Assembly (NCBI RefSeq): GCF_010015445.1
Contig: NC_053123.1
Location: forward strand, 5,546,148-5,610,147
Source: Perca fluviatilis
Taxonomy: Eukaryota; Chordata; Actinopteri; Perciformes; Percidae
Length of the DNA stretch: 64,000 nt
Direction of reading: 5' to 3'
Shown: piece after piece, positions 6,016-45,542 of the stretch
How positions within the stretch are numbered: position 1 is the first letter of the stretch
Layout of the letters: every line of letters begins with the position of its first letter
Notes under the pieces: generated by a model
Seen by the model: only the letters and a program-made list of their open reading frames with translations
What the model was told of the DNA's origin: nothing
Database searches by the model: none
Translations under genes and position numbers: made by a program

Positions 6016-7304
6016 CGGGTGTAAAGTTTGTCTTTTTGTCTTTGTCTTTCTGTTACGCCAACTCAGGGGGAATTTAGAGGGTTCAGGTGAGTTCTTAGTG
6101 TGAAAAACTCCATCGCTACCTTGTTAGCCGGTTCCTGGATGGGCGTGTATGTCTGAAGCGCCGTGAAGCAATTTGTTACATCGCAAGACCTGGTATCAGA
6201 CGATACTTCCTGCTGCTGAAGTTGCAAGGGTGGGTTTTCCGCTCACAGGCGCTAGGGGGAAACGAGACAACCACCATTCAACCCGAAAAAGTTATATAAC
6301 CATTCCAATGACTCCGAAGCTGTTCGGTTAAGGTAAATTAAGCTAAAAAAAAAAATAGTTCCCCACAAACTTTGTGGTGTGTGAGTCATTATTTCTTCTT
6401 CAGAGTTTGATCATTGGCACATATGTGCTATAGGTCCATGAAATGTACTGGAATGTGGAAATGCATTTAAGCACTTTTTGACAACATTGATGAAGAAAAA
6501 GATCCTATAAACTCCTATGTAAAGAAACTAACACAGTATGTGTAACATCTGCAGTTTGCATGTTTTAATTATTCATTATTTGGTTGTAGAAGTAACCATG
6601 GTTTCAGGCTTCAGGGGGATGAGCGACGACTTTGTTCCAGCCATACTTTGTGAGTTACGGTAGAATAGTAACAAATGGCTTTTCTATTAAAATACTCGGT
6701 CTAGCTTCAACTACCGGGATGGTTGGTGGTGCAATCTCATGACATCACTGCATAAAGCTATAAAAGTTTGAAACTGTTGTAATAAAGTTTTATGGATAGC
6801 AATGTTCTGTGCCCTTACCAGCTTAATAAAAGTATTAAAAAAATAAATAAAAAATGCAGACATTTGAAATAAACAGGCTGCTGGAATGTGACACTTAAGT
6901 TTTCTTTGAGAATTGTCATTCATTTTTATTTCAGTGATGTAATGAGGTTGCTTTTCCTCCTGGGCTTGAGGACTCCAAACTTATAAAATGAAAGGACATA
7001 GAAAGCGTGAGAATGTTAAGTGATGGTGATGTTTTTAAAGAAACTCTGTAATATCTCACTAGACGAAAAGGAAGTGTAGTCCGTGAGGCTGCGGAATGAG
7101 ATGTCAGGACAACACACAAGTAGTCCTCATTCCACAGAGTGTGAGCTGAACGTCTCTGATGCTGTGAAGAAATGGAAATACAAAAAGCTACTGCACAATT
7201 AAAGAGTGAGAATCACATTTTTGGGGGGTAAAAAAAAACATAGGATCAACAGAAATGCAGCACCAAATTCGTATTAGGCAGAGAATTGGACTGAAATGCA
7301 AGAT
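6016..7304. other. Intergenic, nothing recognised
   Basis: There are no conserved coding motifs, no clear terminal repeats and no RNA genes. Short reading frames here lack recognisable features. Confidence 0.5.
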
Positions 7305-7785
7305 ATGTAAGTCTGGACCAAAGTAGTCTCGCATTGCCAGACCTTCCTCCACAGTGCTGCGGAGGAGGGTCTGGCTGGTCCACACAGCATTCTGGGATGG
7401 GAGAAAAACGTGCTCTGGTTTATTGGCATTTCTTTAAACCAATCACAATCGTCCTGGAGCGGTGCTAAGTGCCGGACAGAGCCACGGCGCCGCTGCAAAA
7501 CAGCCTCGGGAAGGAACTTGTTTTGGTGGAAAGTGTGTACGTTCAAAAGTAGTTTTAGGCGTGCAACAGAAAACTCAGATTGGACAGATAGTCTAGCTAG
7601 CTGTCTGGATTTACCCTGCAGAGATCTGAGGAGCAGTTAACCATAGTCCTCAGAAATCCACCGGAGTTTAGAACACCAACACAAAGAAACCGGAGGGTAA
7701 CGGACATCCAGCCTAAGTGAGGGACATCCGCTGGAATTTCCAGCTGCTTCCAGTTGCAGAGTTTGCTGGTGCTAGGCTAGCGCAA
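7305..7785. repeat. Probable interspersed repeat (non-coding)
   Basis: The sequence contains a local inverted repeat around 7330-7375 (TCTGGACCAAAGTAGTC and CCAGACC...GGTCTGG). It has the look of a common teleost dispersed repeat. No target duplication was found and the class is unknown. Confidence 0.35.
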
Positions 7786-8252
7786 GTCAACAGTATCTGC
7801 TAGCCTGCCACTAAAAAGCCAGATGTCTGTGTTGATAGAATAATGTTAGGAATAAAACTACCCTTGCATCGCATTACAATAGTCCTACTTTGTTCCATGT
7901 AGTTGGTAGCATAGGCTACAGCAGCAGCAGAGTTATATTACCTAGGCTACCGAGGAAGCCGGTTTCCATGACAATCACCATCACGCAAGTTTCTTTACCT
8001 GCCGCTGCAATTTGCACGTAAACTGTCCGAGCTTACATGACTTTTCTGTCAGCAATTACCTAAAGTTAGCGGTTAGCCCAGCCAGGTATCTACCAAGAGT
8101 GTAGCTATACCGTTAGCTAACGTTGTCACTCTCCACAATGCATTGAACAGTGACATTATCGCCACTAAAGTTGTCAGTCTCAATCTAGGCTAGGCTAACG
8201 TTATGAAAGGGGCTAGCTTTATTAGCTAGAGTAGCCTACCGAAAGTTATTAC
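7786..8252. other. Intergenic, nothing recognised
   Basis: The stretch has many GCTAGC/GTTAGC words but no tandem periodicity and no gene. It would be the intron downstream of the THAP exon if that gene were real. Confidence 0.4.
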
Positions 8253-8539
8253 CTGTTCATCAGTAGCTGTTGGTGCATCTGGAAAGACGGATGGAACACC
8301 ATTCGTTGTCAGTGACATATGGTCCTTTAGATTGCGGGGTTTTTCAAAGTCGTCTGGTCTAAAATGATCACTACACATTCGCCGCTTGAGTAGAGTCTCC
8401 GCCTTGATGTCCAAGCCAGCAGCAAGAAGCCACAGTTGGTTCCTTTCTGGATCTCCCAATGGAAATTTGTGGCAACTTTGTGGTGCCCGTCAGTTTTTTG
8501 TTTTTTTTTACAATTTCTAAATGCACACTGAATCATCAT
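8253..8539 (-). pseudogene. THAP zinc-finger domain exon, frameshifted
   Basis: On the minus strand a start ATG at 8539 gives MMIQCAFRNCKKKQ, matching the N-terminal C-x4-C of a THAP DNA-binding domain. In a different frame the sequence continues FPLGDPERNQLWLLAAGL, then RRMCSDHFRPDDF (the C-x2-H zinc ligands) and GVPSVFPDAP, which matches the AVPTIF box. The two halves are in different frames, with the shift lying between about 8450 and 8500 close to an A-rich run. A GT donor follows at 8251-8252, so this looks like a first exon. THAP domains occur in host transcription factors and in P-element-like transposases. With no downstream exon recognised, it is either a decayed gene or transposon fragment, or a sequencing indel. 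Confidence 0.7.
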
Positions 8540-8926
8540 GTTGCCTAGTCCTTAGTTTCCAATCCAGTGCTTCAGACAGTAGCCTAGTGCTACCCATGCG
8601 AAGCTTTCCCTCCAAAACTTAAAAACGTATCTATACATAGCTTTCAGTTGTCAGCCTACCACTCCAAATGTAAAACATTTACAAATATGCAATAATGCAA
8701 TAACAATCAAACAAGTGCATGGGTATGTGTTTTTATTTATATTTACCATTCAATATCGCAATCGCTGCTGTCAGTCCCATAGTAGAACATGACAGCGCTG
8801 CGTGTGTTTGGAACTATAGCCTACAGGCTTACATGAACCACGTGACCACCCGGCTAGCGAGATCAAAGAGCAACAATTAATATCTCTATGGCTCTGGTGG
8901 CTCTGATCTACACCATAGCGGTTGCC

Positions 8927-9430
8927 GCTGTCACTACCCGATGTGAGTTGAGTGCAGATGTGAGTCGCGCGTGCTCAGATTTAAACGGTTTATGGCATAA
9001 CGCCAAGGGATCCGGATCCGGCTAGCGTTGTTTGCTAACGTTAGCTCAAAACGCCATTCAAGTGATAGCCTTTGTTGTGTTTGATTTCTAACTTGTAGCC
9101 AGCAGTGAACGACCTTAGTTATGTAGGTCCATTTGTATTGTATTGACATAGAAGTCTCTGGTTAGCAGGTTCTTGTAGGCTACTTCAGCCTCTAATCTAG
9201 AACTGACATCAGGGATCATGCTGTGAAAATGTGATGCCTTACGCTAAATAGTACATTACTGCTATGTAATGTACCTATCTCATTATTCTCTGGCTAATAA
9301 ATTACTGCTATGTACCTAATGTACCTATCTCATTATTCTGTGGCTAACAGCAAAACAGATCTGCGTGTAGTCGCAAAGTGACGCGTGCGCGACTCACATC
9401 TGCACTCGACTCACGTCCGGTAGTGACAGC
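8927..9430. mobile_element. MITE with about 45-bp terminal inverted repeats
   Basis: The left end is GCTGTCACTACCCGATGTG followed by AGTTGAGTGCAGATGTGAG. The right end is the inverted counterpart, finishing CACGTCCGGTAGTGACAGC. There are only a few mismatches over about 45 bp. There is no coding capacity. I found no convincing target duplication, so the superfamily is unresolved. Confidence 0.8.
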
Positions 9431-13417: not shown

Positions 13418-14765
13418 CAGGGCTCCACACTAACTTTTTGCCTTGGTTGCACTGGTGCGCCTAACTTTTTTTATTTAGGTGCACCAGCACAAAATTTAGG
13501 TGCACCCAAATTTTTCCTCGCATCGCCGTAACGCTGAATGGCAATACACGATATATAGCTCTGTATTTTTTTACAAAGTGGGCTAAATGTTCAGTTTTAA
13601 GTCAAAGCCACTTTTCACAAGCTCTTTTATTAAAACAGATTGTGATTAAAATAAAATGCAAAGACAGGGTTTTCTTTACCAGTTTGAAAATATACAGCTG
13701 CAACACATATAAATGAAAGTTATCTAAAATAAATAGCCTGAGAAAGCTCCTTCATAAGCTTTCAACAACAATAACAGACTGATTAAAAGAGAGAGAGGAC
13801 GCCCGGATAGCTCAGTTGGTAAATATAGAGGTTTGACTCCGACCTGCAGCCCTTTCCTATATGACAGGCATGAAAACGGGTCAGGGGTGAAAAAGGTGAG
13901 AAGGATATTACCCCTCTAGGGGGGTCTGGGGGCATGCCCCCCCAAAAGAAAATTTTAAATATTCCATATTTTAAAGCATCAATCTGATGCATTTTGAGAT
14001 GCATTTTTTGCCAACCAACAGTGTAATATTTCAATATGCACTCATTAATGTTAATTTGACTGGCAAAACAGTTAAAGTCCTTCTGACATTACACAATAAT
14101 AAAAGTCATAACTTTTAAAGACTAAAAAGTTTTGGATACATTTGTACTACTTCCAACCATATACTAAATAAAGAGTCAATGTGGATTTACATATTGCAAT
14201 AATATCATAATCACAATCTACAATGAATCATTGTGAAAACTAAAATTTACTACTTTGGCCAGGTCATCATCAAAAAAGCAAATTAGTACATTCATGATTT
14301 TGTCCATGCTGATATTAGCTGCTTTATTTACATTTATTAAAAACGTGGCATTGTTTATCTTTTCATATAGCTAGACGTCTAGACTCTGGGACAAGGCCGT
14401 TATGTTTAAATACCTGCCATGCTGATTCCAAACAGACAGCTTTATCAAGGCAGTTTGGGCTTCAGATAGCTTTTACAAATCATGATCCGCTATGAACGTG
14501 CACACACGTATTGTTTGTATCACGGTCGGTCAGTAAAGGAACAGTCGCAGTCTTAACGGTAGCGGTCGTTGCCGGTAACGTACTCGTATTACAGAGTGCA
14601 CGGACCGAAGCTTGTGACTAGCATCTAATGACTAGCAAGCCCTGTCTTACCGCTGCCGGTGTTCTGTCGATGTAGCATACTTTGTCAGAATAGCATACCG
14701 GAAGTTTAGTTTTATAGCGGGGTCTGTCAATTTGGCCTACTTTGTCAAAACAGCATACCAGTGTT

Positions 14766-17100
14766 TATAAAGGGGTATGCTGTTTTGATAACCCCTGGTT
14801 TAATAAAAATACAGTCTATAAAGGGGTATGCTGTTTTGATAGCCCCTGGTTTAATAAAAATACAGTCTATAAAGGGGTATGCTGTTTTGATAGCCCATTG
14901 TTTAATAAAAATACAGTTTATAAAGGGGTATGCTGTTTTGATAACCCCTGGTTTAATAAAAATACAGTCTATAAAGGGGTATGCTGTTTTGATAGCCCCT
15001 GGTTTAATAAAAATACAGTCTATAAAGGGGTATGCTGTTTTGATAGCCCATTGTTTAATAAAAATACAGTTTATAAAGGGGTATGCTGTTTTGATAGCCC
15101 CTGGTTTAATAAAAATACAGTTTATAAAGGGGTATGCTGTTTTGATAACCCCTGGTTTAATAAAAATACAGTCTATAAAGGGGTATGCTGTTTTGATAGC
15201 CCATTGTTTAATAAAAATACAGTCTATAAAGGGGTATGCTGTTTTGATAACCCCTGGTTTAATAAAAATACAGTTTATAAAGGGGTATGCTGTTTTGATA
15301 ACCCCTGGTTTAATAAAAATACAGTCTATAAAGGGGTATGCTGTTTTGATAGCCCATTGTTTAATAAAAATACAGTTTATAAAGGGGTATGCTGTTTTGA
15401 TAACCCCTGGTTTAATAAAAATACAGTTTATAAAGGGGTATGCTGTTTTGATAGCCCCTGGTTTAATAAAAATACAGTTTATAAAGGGGTATGCTGTTTT
15501 GATAACCCCTGGTTTAATAAAAATACAGTTTATAAAGGGGTATGCTGTTTTGATAGCCCCTGGTTTAATAAAAATACAGTCTATAAAGGGGTATGCTGTT
15601 TTGATAGCCCATTGTTTAATAAAAATACAGTCTATAAAGGGGTATGCTGTTTTGATAGCCCATTGTTTAATAAAAATACAGTCTATAAAGGGGTATGCTG
15701 TTTTGATAGCCCATGGTTTAATAAAAATACAGTCTATAAAGGGGTATGCTGTTTTGATAGCCCTTGTTTATAAAAATACAGTTTATAAAGGGGTATGCTG
15801 TTTTGATAACCCCTGGTTTAATAAAAATACAGTTTATAAAGGGGTATGCTGTTTTGATAGCCCCTGGTTTAATAAAAATACAGTCTATTATAAAAGGGGT
15901 GCTGTTTTGATAGCCCATTGTTTATTAAAAATACAGTCTATAAAGGGGTATGCTGTTTTGATAGCCCATGGTTTAATAAAATAAAAAAGAAAGTCTATAA
16001 AGGGGTATGCTGTTTTGATAGCCCATTGTTTAATAAAATAAAACAGTTTATAAAGGGGTATGCTGTTTTGATAACCCCTGGTTTAATAAAAATACAGTTT
16101 ATAAAGGGGTATGCTGTTTTGATAACCCCTGGTTATAATAAAAATCCAGTCTATAAAGGGGTATGCTGTTTTGATAGCCCCTGGTTTAATAAAAATCCAG
16201 TATTATAAAGGGGTATGCTGTTTTGATAGCCCATTGTTTTAAAAATACAGTTTATAAAGGGGTATGCTGTTTTGATAGCCCCTGGTTTATTAAAAATACA
16301 GTTTATAAAGGGTATGCTGTTTTGATAACCCCTGGTTTAATAAAAATACAGTCTATAAAGGGGTATGCTGTTTTGATAGCCCATTGTTTAATAAAAATAC
16401 AGTTTATAAAGGGTATGCTGTTTTGATAACCCCTGGTTTAATAAAAATACAGTTTATAAAGCGGGTATGCTGTTTTGATAACCCCTGGTTTATAAAAATA
16501 CAGTCTATAAAGGTATGCTGTTTTGATAGCCCCTGGTTTAATAAAAATACAGTCTATAAGGGGTATACTGTTTGATAGCCCATTGTTTAATAAAAATACA
16601 GTTTATAAAGGGTATGCTGTTTTGATAGCCCCTGGTTTAATAAAAATACAGTTTATAAAGGTTTTATACCCTGGTTTAAAAAAATACAGTCTATAAGGGG
16701 TATGCTGTTTTGATAGCCCATTGTTTATTAAAAATACAGTTTATAAATAAATGTTGTTTTGATAGCCCATTGTTTAATAAAAATACATTTATAAAGTATA
16801 TGTTGTTTTGATAGCCCCTGGTTTAATAAAAATACAGTTTATAAAGGGGTATGCTGTTGATAGCCCCTGTTTAAAAAAATACAGTTATAAATTTGATCCA
16901 TTGTTAATAAATTAGATGTTGTAAAAAAAGTTAGTTTTGATAGCCCATTGTTTAATAATAATACAGTTTATAAAGGGTGGCGTTTGATAGCCCATTGTTT
17001 ATAAAAATACAGTTTATAAAGGGTATGCTGTTTTGATAGCCCCTGGTTTAATTTAAAAATACAGTTTATAAAGGGGGGCTGTTTTGATAGCCCCTGTTTC
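14766..17100 (+). repeat. 51-bp satellite array, about 45 units (left arm)
   Basis: The unit runs TATAAAGGGGTATGCTGTTT, TGATAGCCCCTGGTTTAATA, AAAATACAGTC. Variants are TAACCCCTGG, TAGCCCCTGG or TAGCCCATTG at one site and CAGTC or CAGTT at another. Units from 14766 to about 15750 are almost exactly 51 bp. Inward units, especially after 16200, carry many small indels. Because 51 is divisible by three, all units read open with a 17-residue period, which produces long but spurious reading frames on both strands. Confidence 0.97.
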
Positions 17101-17333
17101 GATAGGTCTTGCTTCATAGAAAATGAAGTATTGGGGTCCTTTTTTGTTAGTTTTCACACTTACCAGCGTACCCCTTCATAACCTATTTCTGTGTATCTTA
17201 CTAAAACAAAATAAATTTTAAAAACATTCATTGTTTATAGACTGGTTGAAAAATATTTTAATACAAATTTCATAGAACATTTCAACAGTTTGAGGCAAAC
17301 ATTATGCATTTAACACACTTTTTACACTTGAAC

Positions 17334-17588
17334 CTGAGAGCTGGTTGGGGCTGGGACCTGAGAGCTGGTTGGAGCTGGGACCTGAGAGCTGGTTGGGGAT
17401 GGGACCTGAGAGCTGGCTTGAGCTGGGACCTGAGAGCTGGTTGGGGCTGGGACCTGAGAGCTGGTTGGAGCTGGGACCTGAGAGCTGGGACCTGAGAGCT
17501 GGTTGGAGCTGGGACCTGAGAGCTGGTTGGGGCTGGGTCCTGAGAGCTGGCTTGAGCTTGGACCTGAGAGCTGGCTTGAGCTGGGACC
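17334..17588 (-). repeat. 24-bp minisatellite, left arm copy
   Basis: About 11 units of CTGAGAGCTGGTTGGAGCTG plus GGAC. This is the reverse complement of the minisatellite in the transposase coding region (21416-22185) and of the right-arm array (25714-25971). Confidence 0.95.
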
Positions 17589-17591
17589 TTA

Positions 17592-18239
17592 TGGTGCGTT
17601 CTTTTTGTCCACCGAAGTCGTTTTACGAGTTGTTTTCCGGAGTTACGACCCGGAAGTTGCAAAAAGAGGTCGTATTTACGACTCGTCAAGTCGTCTGAAC
17701 TCAGAGGACCCCGAGCTCACTTTCAAAGATGGCTACGTCGTGCATCACACGTAGTAAACATTGTGGTTATCTACAATTTGAAGCACTTTTGTCTTTGTTG
17801 TAACCAAATGAAGAAGTCGTACACATAGTGCTGTATACTGCTATCTATAGGCATGTCTTATTACGAGTTAAATACCGCCCGATTAGTTATTTTGTAGCTT
17901 GTGCAGCTGAAATTGGCTAGAGACGCTCAGTTGCTATATGACAACAACGGCTTTAAGCCGAGCCTTGAGCAGAAAGCAGAGCAGTAGCCCAACGTTAATG
18001 TTAATCAAAACGTAATTTTCATGCATCAAACTGTGAAATATAGTTGTGTAATATGTCAATAACTGGGTGAATAGAATCCTAAATGTTACTAAAAATGTTA
18101 CAAAAATCCATCTTTTCTCCAACTCGTAGTATTGTGTGACAAAAAGAACGCAACAACCCACGGTAACTCGTTTTCCGACATGGATGTGACGTCACACTCG
18201 AGCTACTAGTTGCGATTACAAGACAAAAAGAACGCACCA
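17592..18239. mobile_element. Harbinger-like MITE nested in left arm
   Basis: Inverted termini TGGTGCGTTCTTTTTGTC and GACAAAAAGAACGCACCA are flanked by TTA (17589-17591 and 18240-18242). A 3-bp TTA/TAA duplication is characteristic of PIF/Harbinger elements. It has no transposase. The same MITE sits in the right arm at the mirror position. Confidence 0.85.
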
Positions 18240-18693
18240 TTAGACCTGGCTTGAGCTGGGAACTGAGAGCTGGTTGGGGCTGGGACCTTAGAACTTTTCA
18301 ACAGTTTGAGGCAAACATTATGCATTTAACACACACTTTTTACACTTGAAATGCTCTGAGGCAAGGGTTGCAGGGGTACACTCCTTGTGCGTCCATCTTG
18401 AGCATATGTCACACTGCACCTTTAAAGACAAAATTTTAAAAATTCACTTTAGAAGTGCAATATATAATCAATGAAGCATTGAAGAATTGTTACAAACTTT
18501 TTCAGCTGTACTAGCAGTAAGATGAAATACATTTCTTCTTACTGCTACATGAGCCTTAAATAGCCATAGTTAAGACTATTGTAATGTAAATTCTTTCAAG
18601 GATGCCTGTATTGCCTGCTTTAGTGAAAGCAGTTAGGAATGTCAGATTGCTGACGGAACACCATACCCATCAGAATGGGATACCTTCGGTTAA

Positions 18694-18735
18694 TGCGCAT
18701 GCGCAGCAGTGAAATTTGTGGAATTGCGCATGCGT
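18694..18735. promoter_or_regulatory. Pair of NRF1-like sites upstream of the transposase gene
   Basis: TGCGCATGCGCA at 18694-18705 is a match to the vertebrate NRF1 palindrome, and TGCGCATGCGT at 18725-18735 is a second near match. They lie about 400-440 bp before the inferred start codon and outside the inverted arm. A promoter role is inferred from the motif and position only. Confidence 0.55.
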
Positions 18736-18779
18736 TAAATTTAAACCATCATTTCAGCATACCTAAGATTACAAGCGGT

Positions 18780-19120
18780 AAGTGTTGGTGTATTATATCG
18801 CATATTATATACACATTACCTAATTGCATGCCTTGTACAATCACAAGAAATGTTGACAGACGTTTTAAATATATTATTTTTAGCAAGTGGAGTCGTAAAG
18901 TCGCGTAATGTCGTGTTAAAACGTTAAATCTGGTGTTAACTCGAGGTTCTAGCGTTTGGCGCCATGTAATGTTTGACTTTTAAATGATTAATGCTTATTT
19001 TTCTAAGTGTTGTATTATATTGCATATTATATACACATTACCTAATTGCATGCCTTGTACAATCACAAGAAATGTGATAGAAATGACTTTTAAATGATTA
19101 ATGCTTATTTTTCTGCTAAC
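18780..19120 (+). repeat. Two-copy direct repeats in the transposase 5' flank
   Basis: A stretch of about 63 bp (containing CATATTATATACACATTACC and TTGCATGCCTTGTACAATC) occurs at about 18789-18851 and again at about 19011-19073. A second word, TGACTTTTAAATGATTAATG, occurs at about 18973 and 19084. The start codon at 19133 follows directly. Confidence 0.85.
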
Positions 19121-20694
19121 TGTAGTTTAACCATGGAAAATAAGTGGGAGGAAATTTTCAATTACCTTTTAAAGGGTTCATACCCTGCAGAGCTAAATAA
19201 AGGGCAGAAGCAAAGCCTAAGGAAATACTCCTCGAAATTCAGGATTCACGGTCAGTATTTACTATCAAAATAAGTCTGTAATACTAACAGGAATATGCAC
19301 GTGTTCATATTTTGTATTTATTATTGGTTATGTCAATATTCCTTAAAGATGGAGAACTACTCTTTGGCAGTCACAGAAGAGTCATAAAGACAAAGGAGGA
19401 GGCTAGGAATTTATTTAAAGAATTTCATGCCTCACCTATCGGAGGACATACAGGAACCTTAAAAACACGAGCTGCCATGTGTTCACGGTTCTACTGGTAT
19501 GGCATGACAGTGGACATTGACAAATGGGTATGTAGTTTATCTGTTCATCCATAAGCCAAAATTTGTATTTTTATAAGTCTATATCTACATATTAATAGCT
19601 ATGTGAAAGTTACTGTTTTTTTTTCAAGATATCTGAATGTGACCAATGTCAACGGGTGGGACCACCCCTGAATGCAGTTAAAACTCTGGACTGCATCAAG
19701 GTCACCATCTTTTGTAATCGACTAGATTTTAACAATGCTAAGCATTATTTTATTTAATCTATTATGCATTCAAATCACTAATAGGTATCTGCTGTTTGGG
19801 AGCTCATCGGAATTGATCTCACTGGTCCACTCCAAAAAACATCTACTGGGTATCAGTATATATTGACAGTCACTGACTATTTTTCCAAGTGGGTGGAGGC
19901 CTTTCCTCAAAAGACAGTCTGCATTGGAAGTAGCCAAAAACCTTTGTACAGTCATTTATAGACATGGCTGCCCTAAGCGCATACTGTCAGACCAAGGACG
20001 GGAGTTTGTCAATCAAGTAAGCTTCACTTTATGCATTTTGTTCTGATTATGTCATTTGTAATTTGGTGCTCAAAAAATACAGATTTATTGATTGAAATAT
20101 TTGACAGAAGTACTATAAACCAAATGAAAATAATGTTCTGATTTTTTATTTTTTTTATTTTAGATCAACAGCACACTTTGTGAGCTGCTTTCTATTGAGA
20201 GGAGTGTTACGGCTGCTTACCATCCCCAAACAAATGGGCTCGATGAGAAAACCAATGATAACATCAAACGGTAAGCATTCATTATTCTTGCGTTTATTTT
20301 CAGGGTTTTGTTTATTTGGTAGCTCTTCTGATCATTATTACCAGAGTGTATTGAAAGTTGGTAGTTTCTGTCTTGAAATACATTCATTTAGAAATAATTC
20401 TAAAAATTATTTTTCTAGGGCACTTAAAAAGCTTGTTAATGATCAGCAGGATGACTGGGACCAGTACCTAGATGCAAGTCTTTTTTCACTGAGATCCAAA
20501 ATACAAACCACAACAAAATTCTCACCATTTCTTTTAATGTATGGGCGAGAAGCTAGATTTCCATCAGAAGTGCCTGTTGAACTGCCGGTAGGTTTTTTTT
20601 TTTCTCTTTTTCTTGAAAATGGCTTTCTGTTAGGGCCAAGCATCAAGTGACCAAACATTTTAAAAGATAGGCTTAGATAATATAGCTTAAACCA

Positions 20695-20990
20695 GTAGGG
20701 CTGTCACTTTACGTTCGAAAATCGATTGCACAATCGATCGGACCAACCAACACAATTTTTTAAACGATTTTAACGGTCTTTTCTCGGAGCGCTACGATAC
20801 GCCCGCAGCGAACGCGCGTCACACAGCAACTGCAGGCTCTGACAAACACAAATAACAGCAAATTATACTTCTGCATAATGTTTCTCTTTTTACTACAAAA
20901 GTGTGAATTCTGCCGGTATTCAGACAGTCTCATACATACAGATACAGATTCGGGCTACAATCGCCTAGTCAAAATTTTATTGTAGATTAA
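20695..20990. mobile_element. hAT-type fragment inside a transposase intron
   Basis: TAGGGCTGTCACTTTACG, the form of a hAT MITE left terminus, begins near 20697 within the intron before the last integrase exon. No matching right end was identified. Confidence 0.35.
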
Positions 20991-21415
20991 TTTAGTGTAA
21001 AAGTCTATACTATGAAATGTACAAGTCATTCATTATCTATTTTGTTGTAGCTTTCAACAATAATACTCCCTGAAGACTGCAGTGAATTTCTCAGGGACAG
21101 TCAGAGAATGCAAGAGAGCACAAGAGAAAAGGTTGAGGAGAATATTGCACAGTCACAAAAAAAAATGACAGAGGCATTTGCAAAAAGAGTTCAGAAAAAG
21201 TACAGAAATGTGGAGTTTAAAGAAGGAGATGAAGTACTCTTACTGAACATGAGAAAGAGAAGCAGGAAAGGAGGGAGAATGGAAGCAGACTACACTGGAA
21301 CCTACACAATTCAGGAGATTTCAGGAAAGACAGCAACTTTACAAACACCACAGGGTGTCTGTCTTAAAACAAAATATAACATCAGTCACCTGAAACCTTA
21401 TAAAAAAAGTAGTGC

Positions 21416-22185
21416 CAGCTCTCAGGTCCCAGCCCCAACCAGCTCTCAGGTCCCAGCTCAAGTCAGCTCTCAGGTCCCAGCTCTCAGGTCCCAGCTCAAG
21501 CCAGCTCTCAGGTCCCAGCTCCAACCAGCTCTCAGGTCCCAGCTCCAACCAGCTCTCAGGTCCCAGCTCCAACCAGCTCTCAGGTCCCAGCTCAAGCCAG
21601 CTCTCAGGTCCCAGCTCCAACCAGCTCTCAGGTCCCAGCTCAAGCCAGCTCTCAGGTCCCAGCTCAAGCCAGGTCTAAGGTCCCAGCTCCAACCAGCTCT
21701 CAGGTCCAAGCACCAACCAGCTCTCAGGTCCCAGCCCCAACCAGCTCTCAGGTCCCAGCTCAAGCCAGGTCTAAGGTCCCAGCTCCAACCAGCTCTCAGG
21801 TCCCAGCTCAAGCCAGCTCTCAGGTCCCAGCTCAAGCCAGGTCTAAGGTCCCAGCTCCAACCAGCTCTCAGGTCCCAGCTCAAGCCAGCTCTCAGGTCCC
21901 AGCTCAAGCCAGGTCTAAGGTCCCAGCTCCAACCAGCTCTCAGGTCCCAGCTCCAACCAGCTCTCAGGTCCCAGCCCCAACCAGCTCTCAGGTCCCAGCT
22001 CAAGCCAGGTCTAAGGTCCCAGCTCCAACCAGCTCTCAGTTCCCAGCTCAAGCCAGCTCTCAGGTCCCAGCTCAAGCCAGCTCTCAGGTCCCAGCCCCAA
22101 CCAGCTCTCAGGTCCCAGCTCAAGCCAGCTCTCAGGTTCCAGCTCAAGCCAGCTCTCAGGTTCCAGCTCAAGCCAGGTCTAAGGT
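21416..22185 (+). repeat. 24-bp minisatellite within the transposase coding region
   Basis: About 32 units of AGCTCTCAGGTCCCAGCTCA plus AGCC occur, with CCAACC and GGTCTAAGG variants. In the integrase frame it reads as Pro-Ala-x-x-Ser-Ser-Gln-Val repeats. A 14-bp partial unit near 21477-21491 shifts the frame, after which the sequence stays open as LRSQLKPA-type repeats because 24 is divisible by three. Each unit contains CAG-GT, a splice-donor-like word. Confidence 0.95.
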
Positions 22186-22421
22186 CCTAGCTCATACCAG
22201 TTCTCTGCTACCTGTTTGGAGTAGTGCTCAAGAACAAGGTGCAATAGAAACTCATAAGTTAGTTCTGACCTGTTGGTCGTTGGTTTAAACCGGTTGGTCA
22301 TCAAGTTGCATGTTTCTCCCATGACCTGTTCCTGGTCATGGTTGCATGTGTTCTTTGTTGAAAATGTAAATGTTACAGTTTTTCATCTAAATATTAACAA
22401 GACTAATGTTCTGTGTTGCAG

Positions 22422-23754
22422 TCCAAAAACTTTGGTCTTCCAAAGATACAGGACAAGTGGAAGCGGTCGTGGGACCATACAAAATTTATGATACCTCTTT
22501 TAGAACACTATCGGGACACGGCTGGCTTTCAGATGAGGTGAAAGTACATCCATGTGATATACAAGTTTAATGTTTCAGTGCTGTATCAAATTAAATTACT
22601 AACAACTTTTTTTGTTTACACAGATCATTGATGCATACCTGCACTGCATTATGAAGTTAGCCAAGGTAATAAATTAAATTTCACTCCTTATCTGTGTTTT
22701 CATTCTGTTGTTAGAAATACTGGATCTAACAGACCAATACTGTTACAGATACCTGTGCATTGTTTGGATGCTGTACTTGGGTCCTCTGTCTTTCATCGTG
22801 GCCAATTCAGAGTTGTTCAAAAGGTAATATGGTTTTATTACAGACTATGTAACCTTATACACATGCATGTTGGAACTTTGGATTTTAAGTGCTCTCTTCT
22901 ATTTTTAGATGAAGTTACCCACAGCCTCAACTTGGATTTGTCCTGTAAACGTTGGAGGTCACTGGATTTTAGTGGTACTTTTCTTGATTCTGTATTTACC
23001 ACAAACTTTCTTGGTAGTTTTTGGTGTGTCTATAAAATCTTTAGGGATTGTTTTAGGATTAACTAATACATTTTTTTAAATTTCAACAGATTGTGAAAAT
23101 GGATGAAAAATCCCTCCTTGTGATAGACCCCCTCGGTAATGAAAATATGTACCAGAGAAAAATTCTTTGGAATTGGAGGTAATGTAAACAAGCCTTTCTT
23201 ACTGTGTTTGTAGACTAATTTATTTGAATATGTTTCTGAACTAATGACTTGTACAATAACAGAAATTTTTGGAAGACAAGAAATGTCAGTGAAGGCCCGT
23301 GGACGATCCAAACTGCAAAACACAATCTGCAGCAGGACGGCTCTAGTTGTGGAGTCTTAATTTTGATGGTATGGATATTATTGATAAATGTAATTGGGGT
23401 GAATGTGTGTTACTTTACACCTACACTGACTCTTTGTAGTTTGCAGAGCTCATTCTCCAAGGTAGAAGTATCTGCGTTGCTCAAACAGACACAGAGGAGG
23501 TCTTAGCTGCAAGAGTCAAAATTGCAGCCACTCTTCTGGAATGCAAAGGTATCCATTAATTATCAATGTCTGACTTGTCCTTTGAAAAGAGACTATATTA
23601 AGGATAAATTGTGCTAAAGTCTTGAAGCAAATGTCTTTAAATTAACATTGCTTGTGTTGCACTATTTTTGTTTTTAATTTAAGATGGTGTGGAAGATCTC
23701 TGTGTTTCCTGCAACATGTTGCAGTTTGATGCTGAGGAGGATTTCACAGAGATG
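22422..23754 (+). CDS. Ginger transposase, Ulp1/C48-like cysteine protease half
   Basis: Eight exons join without a frame break: 22422-22537, 22624-22665, 22749-22823, 22909-22974, 23090-23178, 23263-23368, 23440-23548 and 23684-23754. The peptide shows VVGPYKIYDTSFRTL, GHGWLSDE then IIDAYLHCIMKLAK (the substrate-groove start of Ulp1 folds), His in VNVGGHWILV, Asp in LLVIDPLGN, and Gln and Cys in LQQDGSSCGVLILM. This is the His-Asp-Gln-Cys set of SUMO/NEDD8-type C48 proteases. Exon 22422 begins in phase 1, so it probably splices from the integrase exons through the minisatellite into one protein, though a separate transcript is possible. The last recognised segment, DLCVSCNMLQ, may start a cysteine-rich finger that the LINE insertion has cut off. 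The biological target of the protease is unknown. Confidence 0.85.
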
Positions 23755-23839
23755 GTAATAAGACAATAGGTTATATACTGACAAACTGGCAACTTTCACT
23801 ATCCAGCCACTCAGCTTTTTGTCTTCATCTGATGTAAAT

Positions 23840-24330
23840 CAATTCTGATTCACCCGACAATTGCAGAGTCGTCTGAGTATTTCTGCAGATGACAGGTCTC
23901 TGACTTAAACTGGAAGTCTGAGGTGTACAGAGGGAAAAGGAATGGTGAGAGTACGGTCCCCTGTGGTGCTCTTGTGCTGCGGAACACCTGGTTTGACACA
24001 CAATCCTTCAGTCTCAAACTGTGGTCTGTTTGTCAGGTAGTCATTGATCCAGGCGATTGTTGAGGGCTTCACCTGTGTCTTCTGGAGTTTCTGACAAAGC
24101 AAATCAGGCTGAATTGTGTTAAATGCACTGGAGAAATCAAAGAACATGATCCTCACAGTGCTGCCTGCTTTGTCCAGATGACAGTGGGTTGGTTGAAGCA
24201 GGTGGATGATGGCATCTTCAACGCCAACTCCACTATGATAAGCAAACTGCAGGGGATCCTGATATGTTCTAGTTTGCTTACTCAGGTGGGGCAACAGTTG
24301 TCTCTCCAGGACCTTACCTGATTGCCTAAT
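23840..24330 (-). mobile_element. LINE reverse-transcriptase fragment inside the Ginger gene
   Basis: The minus strand reads QTRTYQDPLQFAYHSGVGVE, then DAIIHLLQ, then RIMFFDFSSAFNTIQPDLL and WINDYLTNRPQF. These are fingers/palm motifs of a non-LTR reverse transcriptase, with FDFSSAFN as motif A. Only about 150 residues remain, with one frame disturbance near the NRPQF end. It lies downstream of the last protease exon and opposite in orientation to the gene. Confidence 0.85.
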
Positions 24331-24467
24331 CCTAACCCCTCCCCCACAACTAATCCTAAACCTACCAATACAAGGGGGGTAATAATTTGGCGGGGGTCGA
24401 AATTCTGCACAACACCGGTTCAGTCTCTTCAGCTCCCTCTTCATCTGACTTCTAGAGACAGACAAGT

Positions 24468-24595
24468 GGGAGGCGAAGGGAAATGGAGCAGCAGCATCTC
24501 CTGGTTTGGTTCAACTATGCTGTGTCTTCTTTTTGCTTACCTGCAAGCATTTCAGTATAGTGTTGTGACATTTTCTTCATAAGGGATGGCAATAA
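24468..24595 (+). other. Possible 3' terminal exon and poly(A) signal of the Ginger gene
   Basis: An acceptor-like CTTCTAG precedes a short frame ending in a stop near 24560, and AATAAA lies at about 24591-24596. This would suit a transcript end just before the right arm, but the encoded peptide has no recognisable motif. Confidence 0.3.
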
Positions 24596-25217
24596 AATCC
24601 TTGGTCTTTTTATGAATTTATTTCAGCTTGTTACCAAGCAGAGCAGAACGCAAAGCATTTTGTATGACTCTTCTCCCCCACTAACATCCGCCCCCCAATC
24701 CAGCCCACATGAACATTAGATAAAAGGTTCTCAGGACTGGTATGGCCTTGTAAGATGTCATGGTGTCTTCTGGGACAGTCCACTCTTCTGAAGTAGTCAG
24801 TAATCAGCAATCTGACATTCCTAACTGCTTTCACTAAAGCAGGCAATACAGGCATCCTTGAAAGAATTTACATTACAATAGTCTTAACTATGGCTATTTA
24901 AGGCTCATGTAGCAGTAAGAAGAAATGTATTTCATCTTACTGCTAGTACAGCTGAAAAAGTTTGTAACAATTCTTCAATGCTTCATTGATTATATATTGC
25001 ACTTCTAAAGTGAATTTTTAAAATTTTGTCTTTAAAGGTGCAGTGTGACATATGCTCAAGATGGACGCCAAGAAGGTGTACCCCTGCAACCCTTGCCTCA
25101 GAGCATTTCAAGTGTAAAAAGTGTGTGTTAAATGCATAATGTTTGCCTCAAACTGTTGAAAAGTTCTAAGGTCCCAGCCCCAACCAGCTCTCAGTTCCCA
25201 GCTCAAGCCAGGTCTAA

Positions 25218-25710
25218 TGGTGCGTTCTTTTTGTCTTGTAATCGCAACTAGTAGCTCGAGTGTGACGTCACATCCATGTCGGAAAACGAGTTACCGTGGG
25301 TTGTTGCGTTCTTTTTGTCACACAATACTACTACTAAGCTCGGCTTAAAGCCGTTGTTGTCATATAGCAACTGAGCGTCTCTAGCCAATTTCAGCTGCAC
25401 AAGCTACAAAATAACTAATCGGGCGGTATTTAACTCGTAATAAGACATGCCTATAGATAGCAGTATACAGCACTATGTGTACGACTTCTTCATTTGGTTA
25501 CAACAAAGAAAAAAAATGCTTCAAATTGTAGATAACCACAATGTTTACTACCGTGTGATGCACGACGTAGCCATCTTTGAAAGTGAGCTCGGGGTCCTCT
25601 GAGTTCAGACGACTTGACGATGCGTAAATACGACCTCTTTGCAACTTCCGGGTCGTAACTCCGGAAAACAACTCGGAAATGAAACTTTCGGTGGACAAAA
25701 AGACACACCA
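25218..25710. mobile_element. Harbinger-like MITE nested in right arm
   Basis: This is the mirror copy of 17592-18239, with ends TGGTGCGTTCTTTTTGTC and a slightly changed GACAAAAAGACACACCA. It is flanked by TAA at 25215-25217 and 25711-25713. An internal deletion relative to the left copy falls near 25330. Confidence 0.85.
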
Positions 25711-25713
25711 TAA

Positions 25714-25971
25714 GGTCCCAGCTCAAGCCAGCTCTCAGGTCCAAGCTCAAGCCAGCTCTCAGGACCCAGCCCCAACCAGCTCTCAGGACCCAGCTCCAAC
25801 CAGCTCTCAGGTCCCAGCTCTCAGGTCCCAGCTCCAACCAGCTCTCAGGTCCCAGCCCCAACCAGCTCTCAGGTCCCAGCTCAAGCCAGCTCTCAGGTCC
25901 CAGCCCCAACCAGCTCTCAGGTCCCAGCTCCAACCAGCTCTCAGGTCCCAGCCCCAACCAGCTCTCAGGTT
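25714..25971 (+). repeat. 24-bp minisatellite, right arm copy
   Basis: About 11 units of the GGTCCCAGCTC-type repeat occur in the same orientation as the coding minisatellite at 21416-22185. It contains the same 14-bp partial unit (CCCAGCTCTCAGGT) that occurs in the coding array and the left arm. Confidence 0.95.
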
Positions 25972-26204
25972 CAAGTGTAAAAAGTGTGTTAAATGCATAA
26001 TGTTTGCCTCAAACTGTTGAAAAGTTCTATGAAATTTGTATTAAAATATTTTTCAACCAGTCTATAAACAATGAATGTTTTTAAAATTTATTTTGTTTTA
26101 GTAAGATACACAGAAATAGGTTATGAAGGGGTACGCTGGTAAGTGTGAAAACTAACAAAAAAGGACCCCAATACTTCATTTTCTATGAAGCAAGACCTAT
26201 CGAA

Positions 26205-27148
26205 ACAGGGGCTATCAAAACAGCATACCCCTTTATAAACTGTATTTTTATTAAACCAGGGGCTATCAAAACAGCATACCCCTTTATAAACTGTATTTTT
26301 ATTAAACAATGGGCTATCAAAACAGCATACCCCTTTATAAACTGTATTTTTATTAAACCAGGGGCTATCAAAACAGCATACCCCTTTATAAACTGTATTT
26401 TTATTAAACAATGGGCTATCAAAACAGCATACCCCTTTATAAACTGTATTTTTATTAAACCAGGGGTTATCAAAACAGCATACCCCTTTATAAACTGTAT
26501 TTTTATTAAACAAGGGGTTATCAAAACAGCATACCCCTTTATAAACTGATTTTTTATTAAACAATGGGCTATCAAAACAGCATACCCCTTTATAGACTGT
26601 ATTTTTATTAAACCAGGGGTTATCAAAACAGCATACCCCTTTATAAACTGTATTTTTATTAAACCAGGGGCTATCAAAACAGCATACCCCTTTATAAACT
26701 GTATTTTTATTAAACAATGGGCTATCAAAACAGCATACCCCTTTATAGACTGTATTTTTATTAAACCAGGGGTTATCAAAACAGCATACCCCTTTATAAA
26801 CTGTATTTTTATTAAACCAGGGGTTATCAAAACAGCATACCCCTTTATAAACTGTATTTTTATTAAACCAGGGGTTATCAAAACAGCATACCCCTTTATA
26901 AACTGTATTTTTATTAAACAATGGGCTATCAAAACAGCATACCCCTTTATAGACTGTATTTTTATTAAACCATGGGCTATCAAAACAGCATACCCCTTTA
27001 TAGACTGTATTTTTATTAAACAATGGGCTATCAAAACAGCATACCCCTTTATAGACTGTATTTTTATTAAACCAGGGGTTATCAAAACAGCATACCCCTT
27101 TATAAACTGTATTTTTATTAAACCAGGGGTTATCAAAACAGCATACCC
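26205..27148 (-). repeat. 51-bp satellite array, about 18 units (right arm)
   Basis: The same 51-bp unit as at 14766-17100 is present, inverted. Nearly every unit is intact, unlike the inner part of the left array. Confidence 0.97.
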
Positions 27149-27539
27149 TTCACAAACACCGGTATGCTGTTTTGACAAAGTAGGCCAAATTGACAGACCC
27201 CGCTATAAAACTAAACTTCCGGTATGCTATTCTGACAAAGTATGCTACATCGACAGAACACCGGCGTCTTCCTTGAACATGCGCTGCAGAAGGTTGGTGG
27301 AAGTTCGATGATTGGTCAAAGCTATAGACAGTATGGTTAAATCCAGCGCATTAAAACAAATCCCATGTGGACTTTTTAATTTATTTATTTTTCTAAAATA
27401 GTCATACGGCACCAGGCCCGAGTACTTACACCCCCCCCTCTCCCCCTTAAACATTTTCTCATCAAATCTACACAATTCACGTAGGTCACCTATTTTGGTT
27501 TCAAAACGGCGAATTTCGCCGAAAGGTGAGTGATTTTCA

Positions 27540-43780: not shown

Positions 43781-44128
43781 TAGTCATACTATTATTCTCA
43801 CTGAAGGCATCAAAACTATGAATGAACACATATGGAATTATCTACTTAAAGTGTAAAATAACTGAAAACATGTCTTATATTTTAGATTCCTAAAGATAGA
43901 TAGCCACCCTTTGCTTTTTTGATAGCGCTGCAAACCCTTGGTGTTCTCTCAATGAGCTTCATGAGGTAGTCACCTGAAATGGTTTTCACTTCACAGGTGT
44001 GCTTTGTCAGGGTTAATTAGTGGAATTGTTTCCCTTATTAATAGGGTTGGGACCATCAGTTGTGTTGTGCCGAAGTCAGGTTGATACACAGCCCTCAGCC
44101 CTATTGGACAACTGTTAGAATTCATATT

Positions 44129-45169
44129 ATGGCAAGAACCAATCAGCTAAGTAAAGAGAAACGAGTGGCCATCATTACTTTAACAAATGAAGGTCAGTCA
44201 GTCCAGAAAATTGCGAAAACTTTGAATGTGTCCCAAAGTGCAGTCGCAAAACCCATCAAGCGCTACGAAACGGTCTCACATGAGGACCGCCCCAGGAAAG
44301 GAAGACCAAGAGTTACCTCTGCTGCTGAGGATAAGTTCATCCGAGTCACCTGCCTCAAAAATCGCAAGTTAACAGCAGCTCAGATTAGAGACCAGATGAA
44401 TGCCACACAGAGTTCTAGCAGCACACGCATCTCTAGAACAACTGATAAGAGGAGACTGCGTGAATCAGGCCTTCATGGTCAAGTAGCTGCTAGGAAACCA
44501 CTGCTAAGGAGAGGCAACAAGCAGAAGAGATTTGTTTGGGCCAAGAAACACAAGGAATGGACATTAGACCTGTGGAAATCTGTGCTTTGGTCTGATGAGT
44601 CCAAATTTGAGATCTATGGTTCCAACCGCCGTGTCTTTGGGTGACGCAGAAAAGGTGAACAGATGGATTCTACATGCCTGGTTCCCACCGTGAAGCATGG
44701 AGGAGGAGGTGTGATGGTGTGGGGGTGCTTTGCTGGTGACACTGTTGGGGATTTATTCAAAATTGAAGACCTACTGAACCAGCATGGCTACCACAGCATC
44801 CTGCAGCGACATGCCATCCCATCCGGTTTGCGTTTAGTTGGAACATATTTATTTTTCAACAGGACAATGACCCCAAACACACCTCCAGGCTAGTAGGGGC
44901 TATTTGACCAAGAAGGAGAGTGATGGAGTGCTGCGCCAGATGACCTGGCCTCCACAGTCACCGGACCTGAACCCAATCAAGATGGTTTGGGGTGAGCTGG
45001 ACCGCAGAGTGAAGGCAAAAGGGCCAACAAGTGCTAAGCATCTCTGGGAACTCCTTCAAGACTGTTGGAAAACCATTTCAGGTGACTACCTCTTGAAGCT
45101 CATCAAGAGAATGCCAAGAGTGTGCAAAGCAGTAATTGGAGCAATGGGTGGCTACTTTGAAGAAACTAG
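44129..45169 (+). pseudogene. Tc1-type transposase pseudogene
   Basis: The start MARTNQLSKEKRVAIITL leads into a helix-turn-helix with SVQKIAKTLNVSQSAV and the GRPRV linker. The first catalytic Asp is in LWSDESKFEIYG. A stop codon at 44642-44644 follows SNRRVFG, and frames then change near 44880 around the second Asp motif. The third motif reads SPDLNPIKMVWGELDRR, where family members normally have Glu in the position of this Lys, so a catalytic residue is lost as well. Tc1 transposases are nuclear cut-and-paste enzymes of about 340 residues. This copy has at least three disabling changes and cannot be active. Confidence 0.93.
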
Positions 45170-45542
45170 GGGCCAGTTGTTCAAAACATTTAATCTGGAT
45201 CAAAATTATCCGGATTTGGAAATCCCATGTTTTGCTATCCAGGATCAGGTAATCCGTCCTGCTTTTATGCCGTTTTTTCAAAACAACATTGGATTGGATC
45301 ACCCTTATCCAGATAAACAGTTTTCAAGATTACCAAATATGGATTACAAGTGCTCTAAATGGGACAACATATCACAATGTGGGCTACCAGCTATGTAAAG
45401 AACAGGTAGGAGAGCCAACATGGGGTCACTGTAAGTGTTTCTTATTTTGAGACAAAACACAAAAATAACATAACCATCCACTTCCATTCATAATTTCTTT
45501 TATGACCCCTCATCTGAGTTACAACAAATAAAAACAAATATA

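What the first reader, a model, noticed from the sequence alone, without database searches (positions are those of the whole stretch)
14660..27260. Giant Ginger-like transposon with integrase plus Ulp1-like protease and multi-kilobase inverted arms
Seen: a CCGG-flanked 12.6 kb element with TGTT...AACA tips, 4.0 and 2.5 kb inverted arms, and a gene with HHCC, D,D35E and GPY/F-like motifs followed by a His-Asp-Gln-Cys C48 protease set. Known: Ginger elements carry gypsy-like integrases, leave 4-bp duplications, and some Ginger1 proteins include cysteine protease domains. Inferred: arms this long, built of satellites and minisatellites, are unusual for the group and may define an undescribed lineage.
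Basis: partly seen in the sequence, partly recalled or inferred. Interest (0 to 1): 0.9.

Follow-up and report, generated by a model that had tools for sequence, protein, structure and literature searches.

The report
Foldback Ginger1 transposon in perch
A perch chromosome carries a 12.6-kb Ginger1-type jumping gene whose giant mirror-image arms match each other but are not shared by the 27 sister copies whose two ends could be read, so the arms likely arose when one end of the element was copied backwards onto the other during DNA repair.

Summary
A 12,601-bp element (14660-27260) lies between CCGG duplications. It has a 100-bp perfect outer inverted repeat, 4.0- and 2.5-kb inverted arms, and a broken multi-exon gene for a Ginger1-type transposase: H2C2, D,D35E, GPY/F-like region, Ulp1 protease and PHD finger. 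The window is European perch DNA.

The integrase groups with Ulp1/OTU-bearing Ginger1-type rows, apart from 17 gypsy rows (branch 89/81). But the arms do not define a lineage. Perch holds 36 matches to the outer tip. Of the 34 outside this element 29 were fetched, and 27 of these end in a different second tip (B), related to the first (A) over about 40 bp. In the window end B is internal, at 18650, four bases short. The left arm is an inverted copy of the right end, joined there at a 4-bp microhomology. It carries half of the PHD exon and a nested MITE-like repeat.

Most likely this is a foldback derivative of an asymmetric Ginger1, made by template switching during repair. The 51-bp satellite repeats a tip motif (61 sites in the arms), so it is a plausible array of transposase-binding sites, as shown for Galileo.

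New variant of a known kind.

The parts
14656..14659 (.). CCGG target site duplication, left
14660..14759 (+). outer tip A, left copy: 100 bp identical to the right tip
   Evidence: 34 other matches in the perch genome
14763..17093 (+). 51-bp satellite of the left arm, each unit with the tip motif in reverse
17332..17589 (+). 24-bp minisatellite of the left arm
17588..18240 (+). nested MITE-like repeat inside the minisatellite, also at L009 and L024; a shortened copy lies in the right arm
   Evidence: limits approximate
18333..18419 (-). inverted copy of the PHD half-exon, PHD His kept
   Evidence: Pfam PHD 0.00026, below the curated cut-off
18650..18653 (.). CTGA at the join of the inverted copy with end B
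18650..18800 (+). native end B, now internal and lacking its first four bases TGTT
   Evidence: terminal in 27 of 29 other copies fetched
19133..20590 (+). integrase exons: YPYY-like, H2C2, D,D35E; frameshift near 19915
21051..21410 (+). GPY/F-like exon
21415..22205 (+). 24-bp minisatellite between integrase and protease parts; open in frame, may be coding or intron
22418..23766 (+). Ulp1 (C48) protease exons and the first half of the PHD finger
23905..24510 (-). reverse-transcriptase fragment of a nested retroelement
   Evidence: RVT_1 1.1e-10
24804..27260 (+). right arm, taken as the native 3' part and end A
25038..25124 (+). PHD second half-exon in its native place; PHD His lost
25713..25970 (+). 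24-bp minisatellite of the right arm
26206..27148 (+). 51-bp satellite of the right arm, 18.5 units
27161..27260 (-). outer tip A, right copy
27261..27264 (.). CCGG target site duplication, right

Best explanation
It is a Ginger1-type DNA transposon of perch with two unlike ends, A and B, in which an inverted copy of end A and of the 3' part of the gene sits in front of end B, likely put there by a template switch during repair of a break at end B. Shown: both outer tips are A and abut CCGG, end B is internal and lacks TGTT, the join shares CTGA, and 27 of the 29 other copies fetched have one A and one B end. Inferred: the break, the copying direction (right end as template, because the PHD half-exon has its native place there) and that it happened in situ; CCGGTGTTCTG is common to both outer ends, so a switch there would keep flank and tip intact. 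Predicted and untested: the integrase-type transposase binds the tip motif that the 51-bp satellite repeats, so the arms would act as arrays of binding sites. This copy's own transposase gene carries a frameshift, so any movement would need another copy's enzyme.
For: Outer tips, duplications and arms. One inverted A-A pair among 36 tip matches. Second end B with TGTTCTGACGG or TGTTCTAACGG in 27 of 29 fetched copies; identical CCGG on both sides in 22 of these 27. A and B align over 40 bp, 0 of 2000 shuffles as good. Junction at 18650-18653. PHD half-exon in both arms. Nested MITE-like repeat at the same place in both arms. Tip motif in the satellite; 38 units on the single A end of L020, a non-foldback copy. 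Ginger1 kinship. Precedent for binding sites in arm repeats and for recruitment of gene parts into arms: Galileo, PMC3688188 (abstract) and PMC4168063 (passages).
Against: No full-length A-B copy was seen, because the whole-genome search answered only once. L033 and L036 showed no B end in the 1.4-1.5 kb fetched, and 5 of the 34 other places were not fetched. The CCGG duplication at both outer ends fits transposition of the foldback form as well as an origin in situ. A 4-bp microhomology is weak by itself. Binding of any protein to the motif is untested. The first five bases, TGTTC, depart from the published TGTNR.
Confidence: 0.72

Rival explanations
1. A mobile long-arm subfamily: the A-A foldback form arose elsewhere and then transposed to this site as a 12.6-kb unit.
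For: CCGG on both outer ends and high similarity of the arms fit a recent insertion as a unit.
Against: No other inverted A-A pair within 100 kb among the 36 tip matches; 27 of the 29 other copies fetched are A-B. The gene is frameshifted.
Confidence: 0.2
2. The arms are an assembly artefact of a simple A-B element.
For: Long palindromes are a known assembly problem (recalled); reads were not available here.
Against: The arms differ in satellite number, in a deletion of about 156 bp and in clustered substitutions. The mirror stops at the CCGG duplications and the flanks are unlike: the only match in 500 bp is 18 bp at E 0.009.
Confidence: 0.04
3. An undescribed Ginger1 lineage defined by satellite-built arms.
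For: Satellite at end A is shared by the sister copies, 3 to 38 sites in the 20 copies counted, so repeats at one end are a family trait; kilobase length on one end is seen in L020 as well.
Against: The second arm is absent from the 27 copies whose two ends were read, and the transposase falls inside a fish/amphibian group of 7 tree rows at 100/100.
Confidence: 0.04

Closest known systems
Ginger1 DNA transposons (PMC2836005), Ulp1/PHD type such as Ginger1-9_HM
   Same: CCGG duplication, H2C2 + DDE + GPY/F-like, Ulp1 and PHD at the C-terminal side
   Different: 12.6 kb against 2.6-7 kb; kilobase arms against 40-270-bp repeats; about 14 predicted introns against 0-4; TGTTC against TGTNR
P0121, Astyanax mexicanus 'gypsy retrotransposon integrase-like protein 1', 793 aa
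   Same: H2C2, rve, Ulp1 and PHD in one protein; 70% identity over 63% of the query
   Different: The DNA around it was not seen, so its ends are unknown
Galileo of Drosophila (P superfamily; PMC4168063 and PMC3573991, PMC3688188)
   Same: Arms lengthened by tandem repeats, by recruitment of the 3' end of the transposase gene and by a nested transposon; the longest copy has arms of 4.2 and 4.7 kb
   Different: Unrelated transposase (THAP/P type) and 7-8-bp duplications; binding to the repeats was measured there, not here
Foldback elements such as Tetris (PMC4079207, passages)
   Same: Long inverted arms with internal tandem repeats
   Different: Suggested there to be Mutator-type with 8-10-bp duplications; no transposase gene found
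GIN1 and GIN2 host genes (PMC3424704, passages; PMC2836005)
   Same: Vertebrate genes derived from Ginger1/GIN integrases
   Different: Domesticated, not mobile; no named GIN row was in my trees

Membership tests
Ginger1 | 4-bp CCGG or CCGT target duplication | tested here: met
   Window CCGG/CCGG; CCGG identical on both sides in 22 of 27 other copies with both ends read
Ginger1 | H2C2 zinc finger and DDE core of integrase type | tested here: met
   PF17921 9.8e-17 and PF00665 1.1e-09 on joined exons; gene frameshifted near 19915
Ginger1 | GPY/F motif and YPYY motif | tested here: inconclusive
   Matching residues seen by eye in alignments to relatives; the window reads TGTYTI where relatives read GPY; no profile test
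Ginger1 | C-terminal Ulp1 or OTU protease | tested here: met
   Peptidase_C48 1e-08 in P0046, whose exons are in the window
Ginger1 | integrase groups apart from gypsy retrotransposons | tested here: met
   17 RT- or RNase H-bearing rows on one side of a branch, 89/81, 90% of 200 bootstraps; moderate support
Ginger1 | terminal inverted repeats of 40-270 bp | tested here: met
   Native ends A and B align over about 40 bp with mismatches; the window's outer repeat is 100 bp perfect and runs on into the arms
Ginger1 | TGTNR terminal pattern (shared with gypsy and Ginger2, so not specific to Ginger1) | tested here: not met
   TGTTC at both ends: fifth base is C, not A or G
Ginger1 | length 2.6-7 kb and 0-4 introns (as listed in 2010) | tested here: not met
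   12.6 kb, or 8.6 kb without the left arm; about 14 introns predicted; descriptive range, not a definition
Foldback / Galileo-like architecture | kilobase inverted arms with internal tandem repeats and recruited inner sequence | tested here: met
Galileo (P superfamily) | P-type transposase and 7-8-bp duplication | tested here: not met
   Integrase-type protein and 4-bp CCGG
Galileo-like arms | transposase binds the tandem repeats | not testable with these tools
   Only the motif sharing was shown
Gypsy LTR retrotransposon | direct LTRs with RT and RNase H of the same element | tested here: not met
   Ends are inverted; the only RT found in the scanned frames is a minus-strand fragment

The most novel reading that the evidence does not exclude
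An integrase-type DNA transposon turned into a foldback element in one step: a repair template switch replaced end B by a second end A with its satellite of transposase-binding sites, giving an A-A element that a Ginger1 enzyme can still mobilise, and showing how foldback arms are born.
Probability: 0.25. Interest if true: 0.65.

Novelty: new variant of a known kind. Interest (0 to 1): 0.45.

Why it matters
The origin of foldback arms is hard to trace once sister copies and junctions have decayed. Here the native ends, the junction with its microhomology, an order of events (nested repeat before the duplication, a deletion after it) and unrearranged sister copies lie in one genome, so the origin of such arms becomes testable. 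It also puts foldback arms on an integrase-type transposon: in the listings of seven full-text searches and the passages I read I saw no Ginger element with such arms; Repbase and most subscription papers were not searchable.

Tried and rejected
Undescribed lineage defined by the arms: set aside because of the B ends of sister copies. Gypsy LTR element: set aside because the ends are inverted and RT- or RNase H-bearing relatives fall outside. Several single-exon peptides were too short for Pfam, so joined exons and relatives were used. Empty-site comparison was not possible: no related fish genome was offered. A tree with Ginger2/TDD and named GIN1/GIN2 was not made for lack of labelled rows. 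Dating in years was not attempted.
Full report
What is there. The element runs from 14660 to 27260 (12,601 bp) and is flanked by CCGG at 14656-14659 and 27261-27264. The outer 100 bp of both ends are identical. The inverted arms are 14660-18653 and 24804-27260. Their outer part is a 51-bp satellite (about 37-42 units left, 18.5 right); further in come unique sequence, a 24-bp minisatellite and a nested repeat.

Host. The perch protein model P0046 (PFLUV_G00142060, Perca fluviatilis, on a contig of 39,440,604 bp) matches the window's exons almost throughout, apart from exon edges and one stretch where the model skips exons. The window's contig C12 has exactly that length. So the window is European perch.

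The gene. Relatives place an ordered series of 15 exons between 19133 and 23766, plus a PHD half-exon at 25038-25124. Of the 14 neighbouring pairs, 12 can be joined by a GT-AG intron in frame with no stop. The two pairs that include the DDE exon (19785-20016) show stops because a frameshift lies inside that exon near 19915; for one of them the script found no sensible donor, although one search shows FVNQ followed by GTAAGC. Joined exons match Integrase_H2C2 (9.8e-17) and rve (1.1e-09); the Ulp1 part scores in P0046 (1e-08). The D-to-E spacing is 35 residues, counted by hand. The PHD half-exons score below Pfam's cut-off (0.046 right; 0.00026 left), but the full-length relative P0121 passes it. 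The 24-bp minisatellite between the integrase and protease parts is open in frame but may be an intron.

Kinship. Two searches gave 479 hits (120 listed) and 161 hits (120 listed), many from fishes and amphibians. P0121 of Astyanax (793 aa) has H2C2, rve, Ulp1 and PHD in one chain. A tree of 42 rows that I chose from these lists (one further OTU row, P0164, dropped as too short) puts the window with fish and amphibian rows (7 rows, 100/100; 11 rows, 100/99) in a group of 25 rows (11 OTU, 7 Ulp1, 6 other fish/amphibian, the window). The 17 RT- or RNase H-bearing gypsy rows lie on the other side of one branch, 89/81, in 90% of 200 bootstraps: moderate support. An earlier tree of 86 rows without labelled gypsy rows also put the window among fish rows. 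The best-matching solved structures are foamy-virus and Ty3 integrases, as expected for this group.

What the arms are. The outer 101 bp match 36 places in the perch genome (the tool calls such counts lower bounds). Two are the window's own; of the other 34 I fetched 29 (20, 9). All 20 of the first set have CCGG next to the tip. In 27 of the 29 the element ends 0.27-2.5 kb further on in another tip, TGTTCTGACGGAACACC or TGTTCTAACGGAACACC read inward, which matches window 18650 onward. L033 and L036 showed no such end in the 1.4-1.5 kb fetched. CCGG is identical on both sides in 17 of 20 and 5 of 7. So the family has unlike ends: A with satellite, B without. They align over 40 bp, 0 of 2000 shuffles as good. 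The window holds the only inverted A-A pair within 100 kb among the 36 places; two other close pairs, on C13 and C21, are in the same orientation.

In the window end B is internal at 18650 and lacks its first four bases, TGTT. The sequence before it, 14660-18649, is the right end in reverse, and the join shares CTGA with the inner edge of the right arm. The right arm holds the second half of the PHD finger in sense with the gene; the left arm holds it in reverse and keeps the PHD His, which the right copy has lost. A MITE-like repeat with ATGGTGCGTTCTTTTTGTC ends, also found in L009 and L024, sits at the same place in both arms, and the right copy lacks about 156 bp. The simplest order is nested repeat, inverted duplication, then deletion; later conversion between the arms could blur it. 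Aligned inner segments differ by 3 of 497, 10 of 374 and 6 of 524 bases, the last two sets mostly in clusters.

How it would work. Each typical 51-bp unit contains TCAAAACAGCATACC in reverse; tip A contains it and TCAGAATAGCATACC, and end B contains TCAGAATGGGATACC. There are 63 matches in the window against 0.56 in shuffles: 61 in the arms, one in end B, one outside the element. L020, an ordinary A-B copy, has 38 such sites in reverse on its single A end, so satellite growth does not need the foldback. In Galileo, binding sites for the transposase were found in the tandem repeats of the arms (PMC3688188, abstract); arms there recruited the 3' end of the transposase gene and other transposons (PMC4168063, passages); arm expansion and secondary binding sites are discussed in PMC3573991 (abstract and first part of the discussion). 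By analogy I propose that the satellite is an array of transposase sites, and that a break at end B was repaired by copying end A, entering through CCGGTGTTCTG, common to both outer ends, and leaving through CTGA. The binding and the repair route are inferences.

Literature. Of PMC2836005 I read parts 1-3 of 5. It gives Ginger1 as about 2.6-7 kb with 40-270-bp repeats, CCGG or CCGT duplications, TGTNR ends, 0-4 introns in its table and OTU or Ulp1 domains, and it names gin-1 and gin-2 as derived host genes. PMC12863088, PMC10045372, PMC5753468, PMC3424704, PMC6431247, PMC4079207 and PMC4168063 were seen as passages. I saw no Ginger with such arms in these or in the listings of seven searches.

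Limits. The genome search answered only, so full-length sister copies and the whole set of B ends were not searched, and 5 tip matches were not fetched. No second perch genome and no related fish genome was available. Confidence in the foldback structure is high; that it arose in situ by a template switch is an inference, and the combined statement is scored 0.72.

Noticed in passing
44045-45398 (+): Broken Tc1/mariner-like transposase: HTH_Tnp_Tc3_2 (8.3e-12) in one frame and a weak DDE_3 piece in another.
   Followed up: no
23905-24510 (-): Reverse-transcriptase fragment (RVT_1 1.1e-10) in the last predicted intron of the transposase gene.
   Followed up: no
17588-18240, L009 2737-3388 and L024 9049-9717 in the turned orientation: MITE-like repeat of about 0.65 kb with ATGGTGCGTTCTTTTTGTC inverted ends, 90-92% alike at the two other places; superfamily not determined.
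   Followed up: partly
L020, about 6486-9000 of the locus: A 2.5-kb A-B copy with 38 tip-motif sites on one end: satellite expansion without a foldback.
   Followed up: partly
L010, about 1430-1930: The middle of this short copy holds sequence not matched to the window element, with an inverted pair ending in ACGTGTTCACGGAGACGTTTTT (seen by eye): perhaps another nested element.
   Followed up: no
proteins P0015, P0019, P0033: Ginger1-type integrase parts appear in protein models named finTRIM, phosphopantothenoylcysteine decarboxylase and kinesin C1: fusion transcripts or annotation errors.
   Followed up: no
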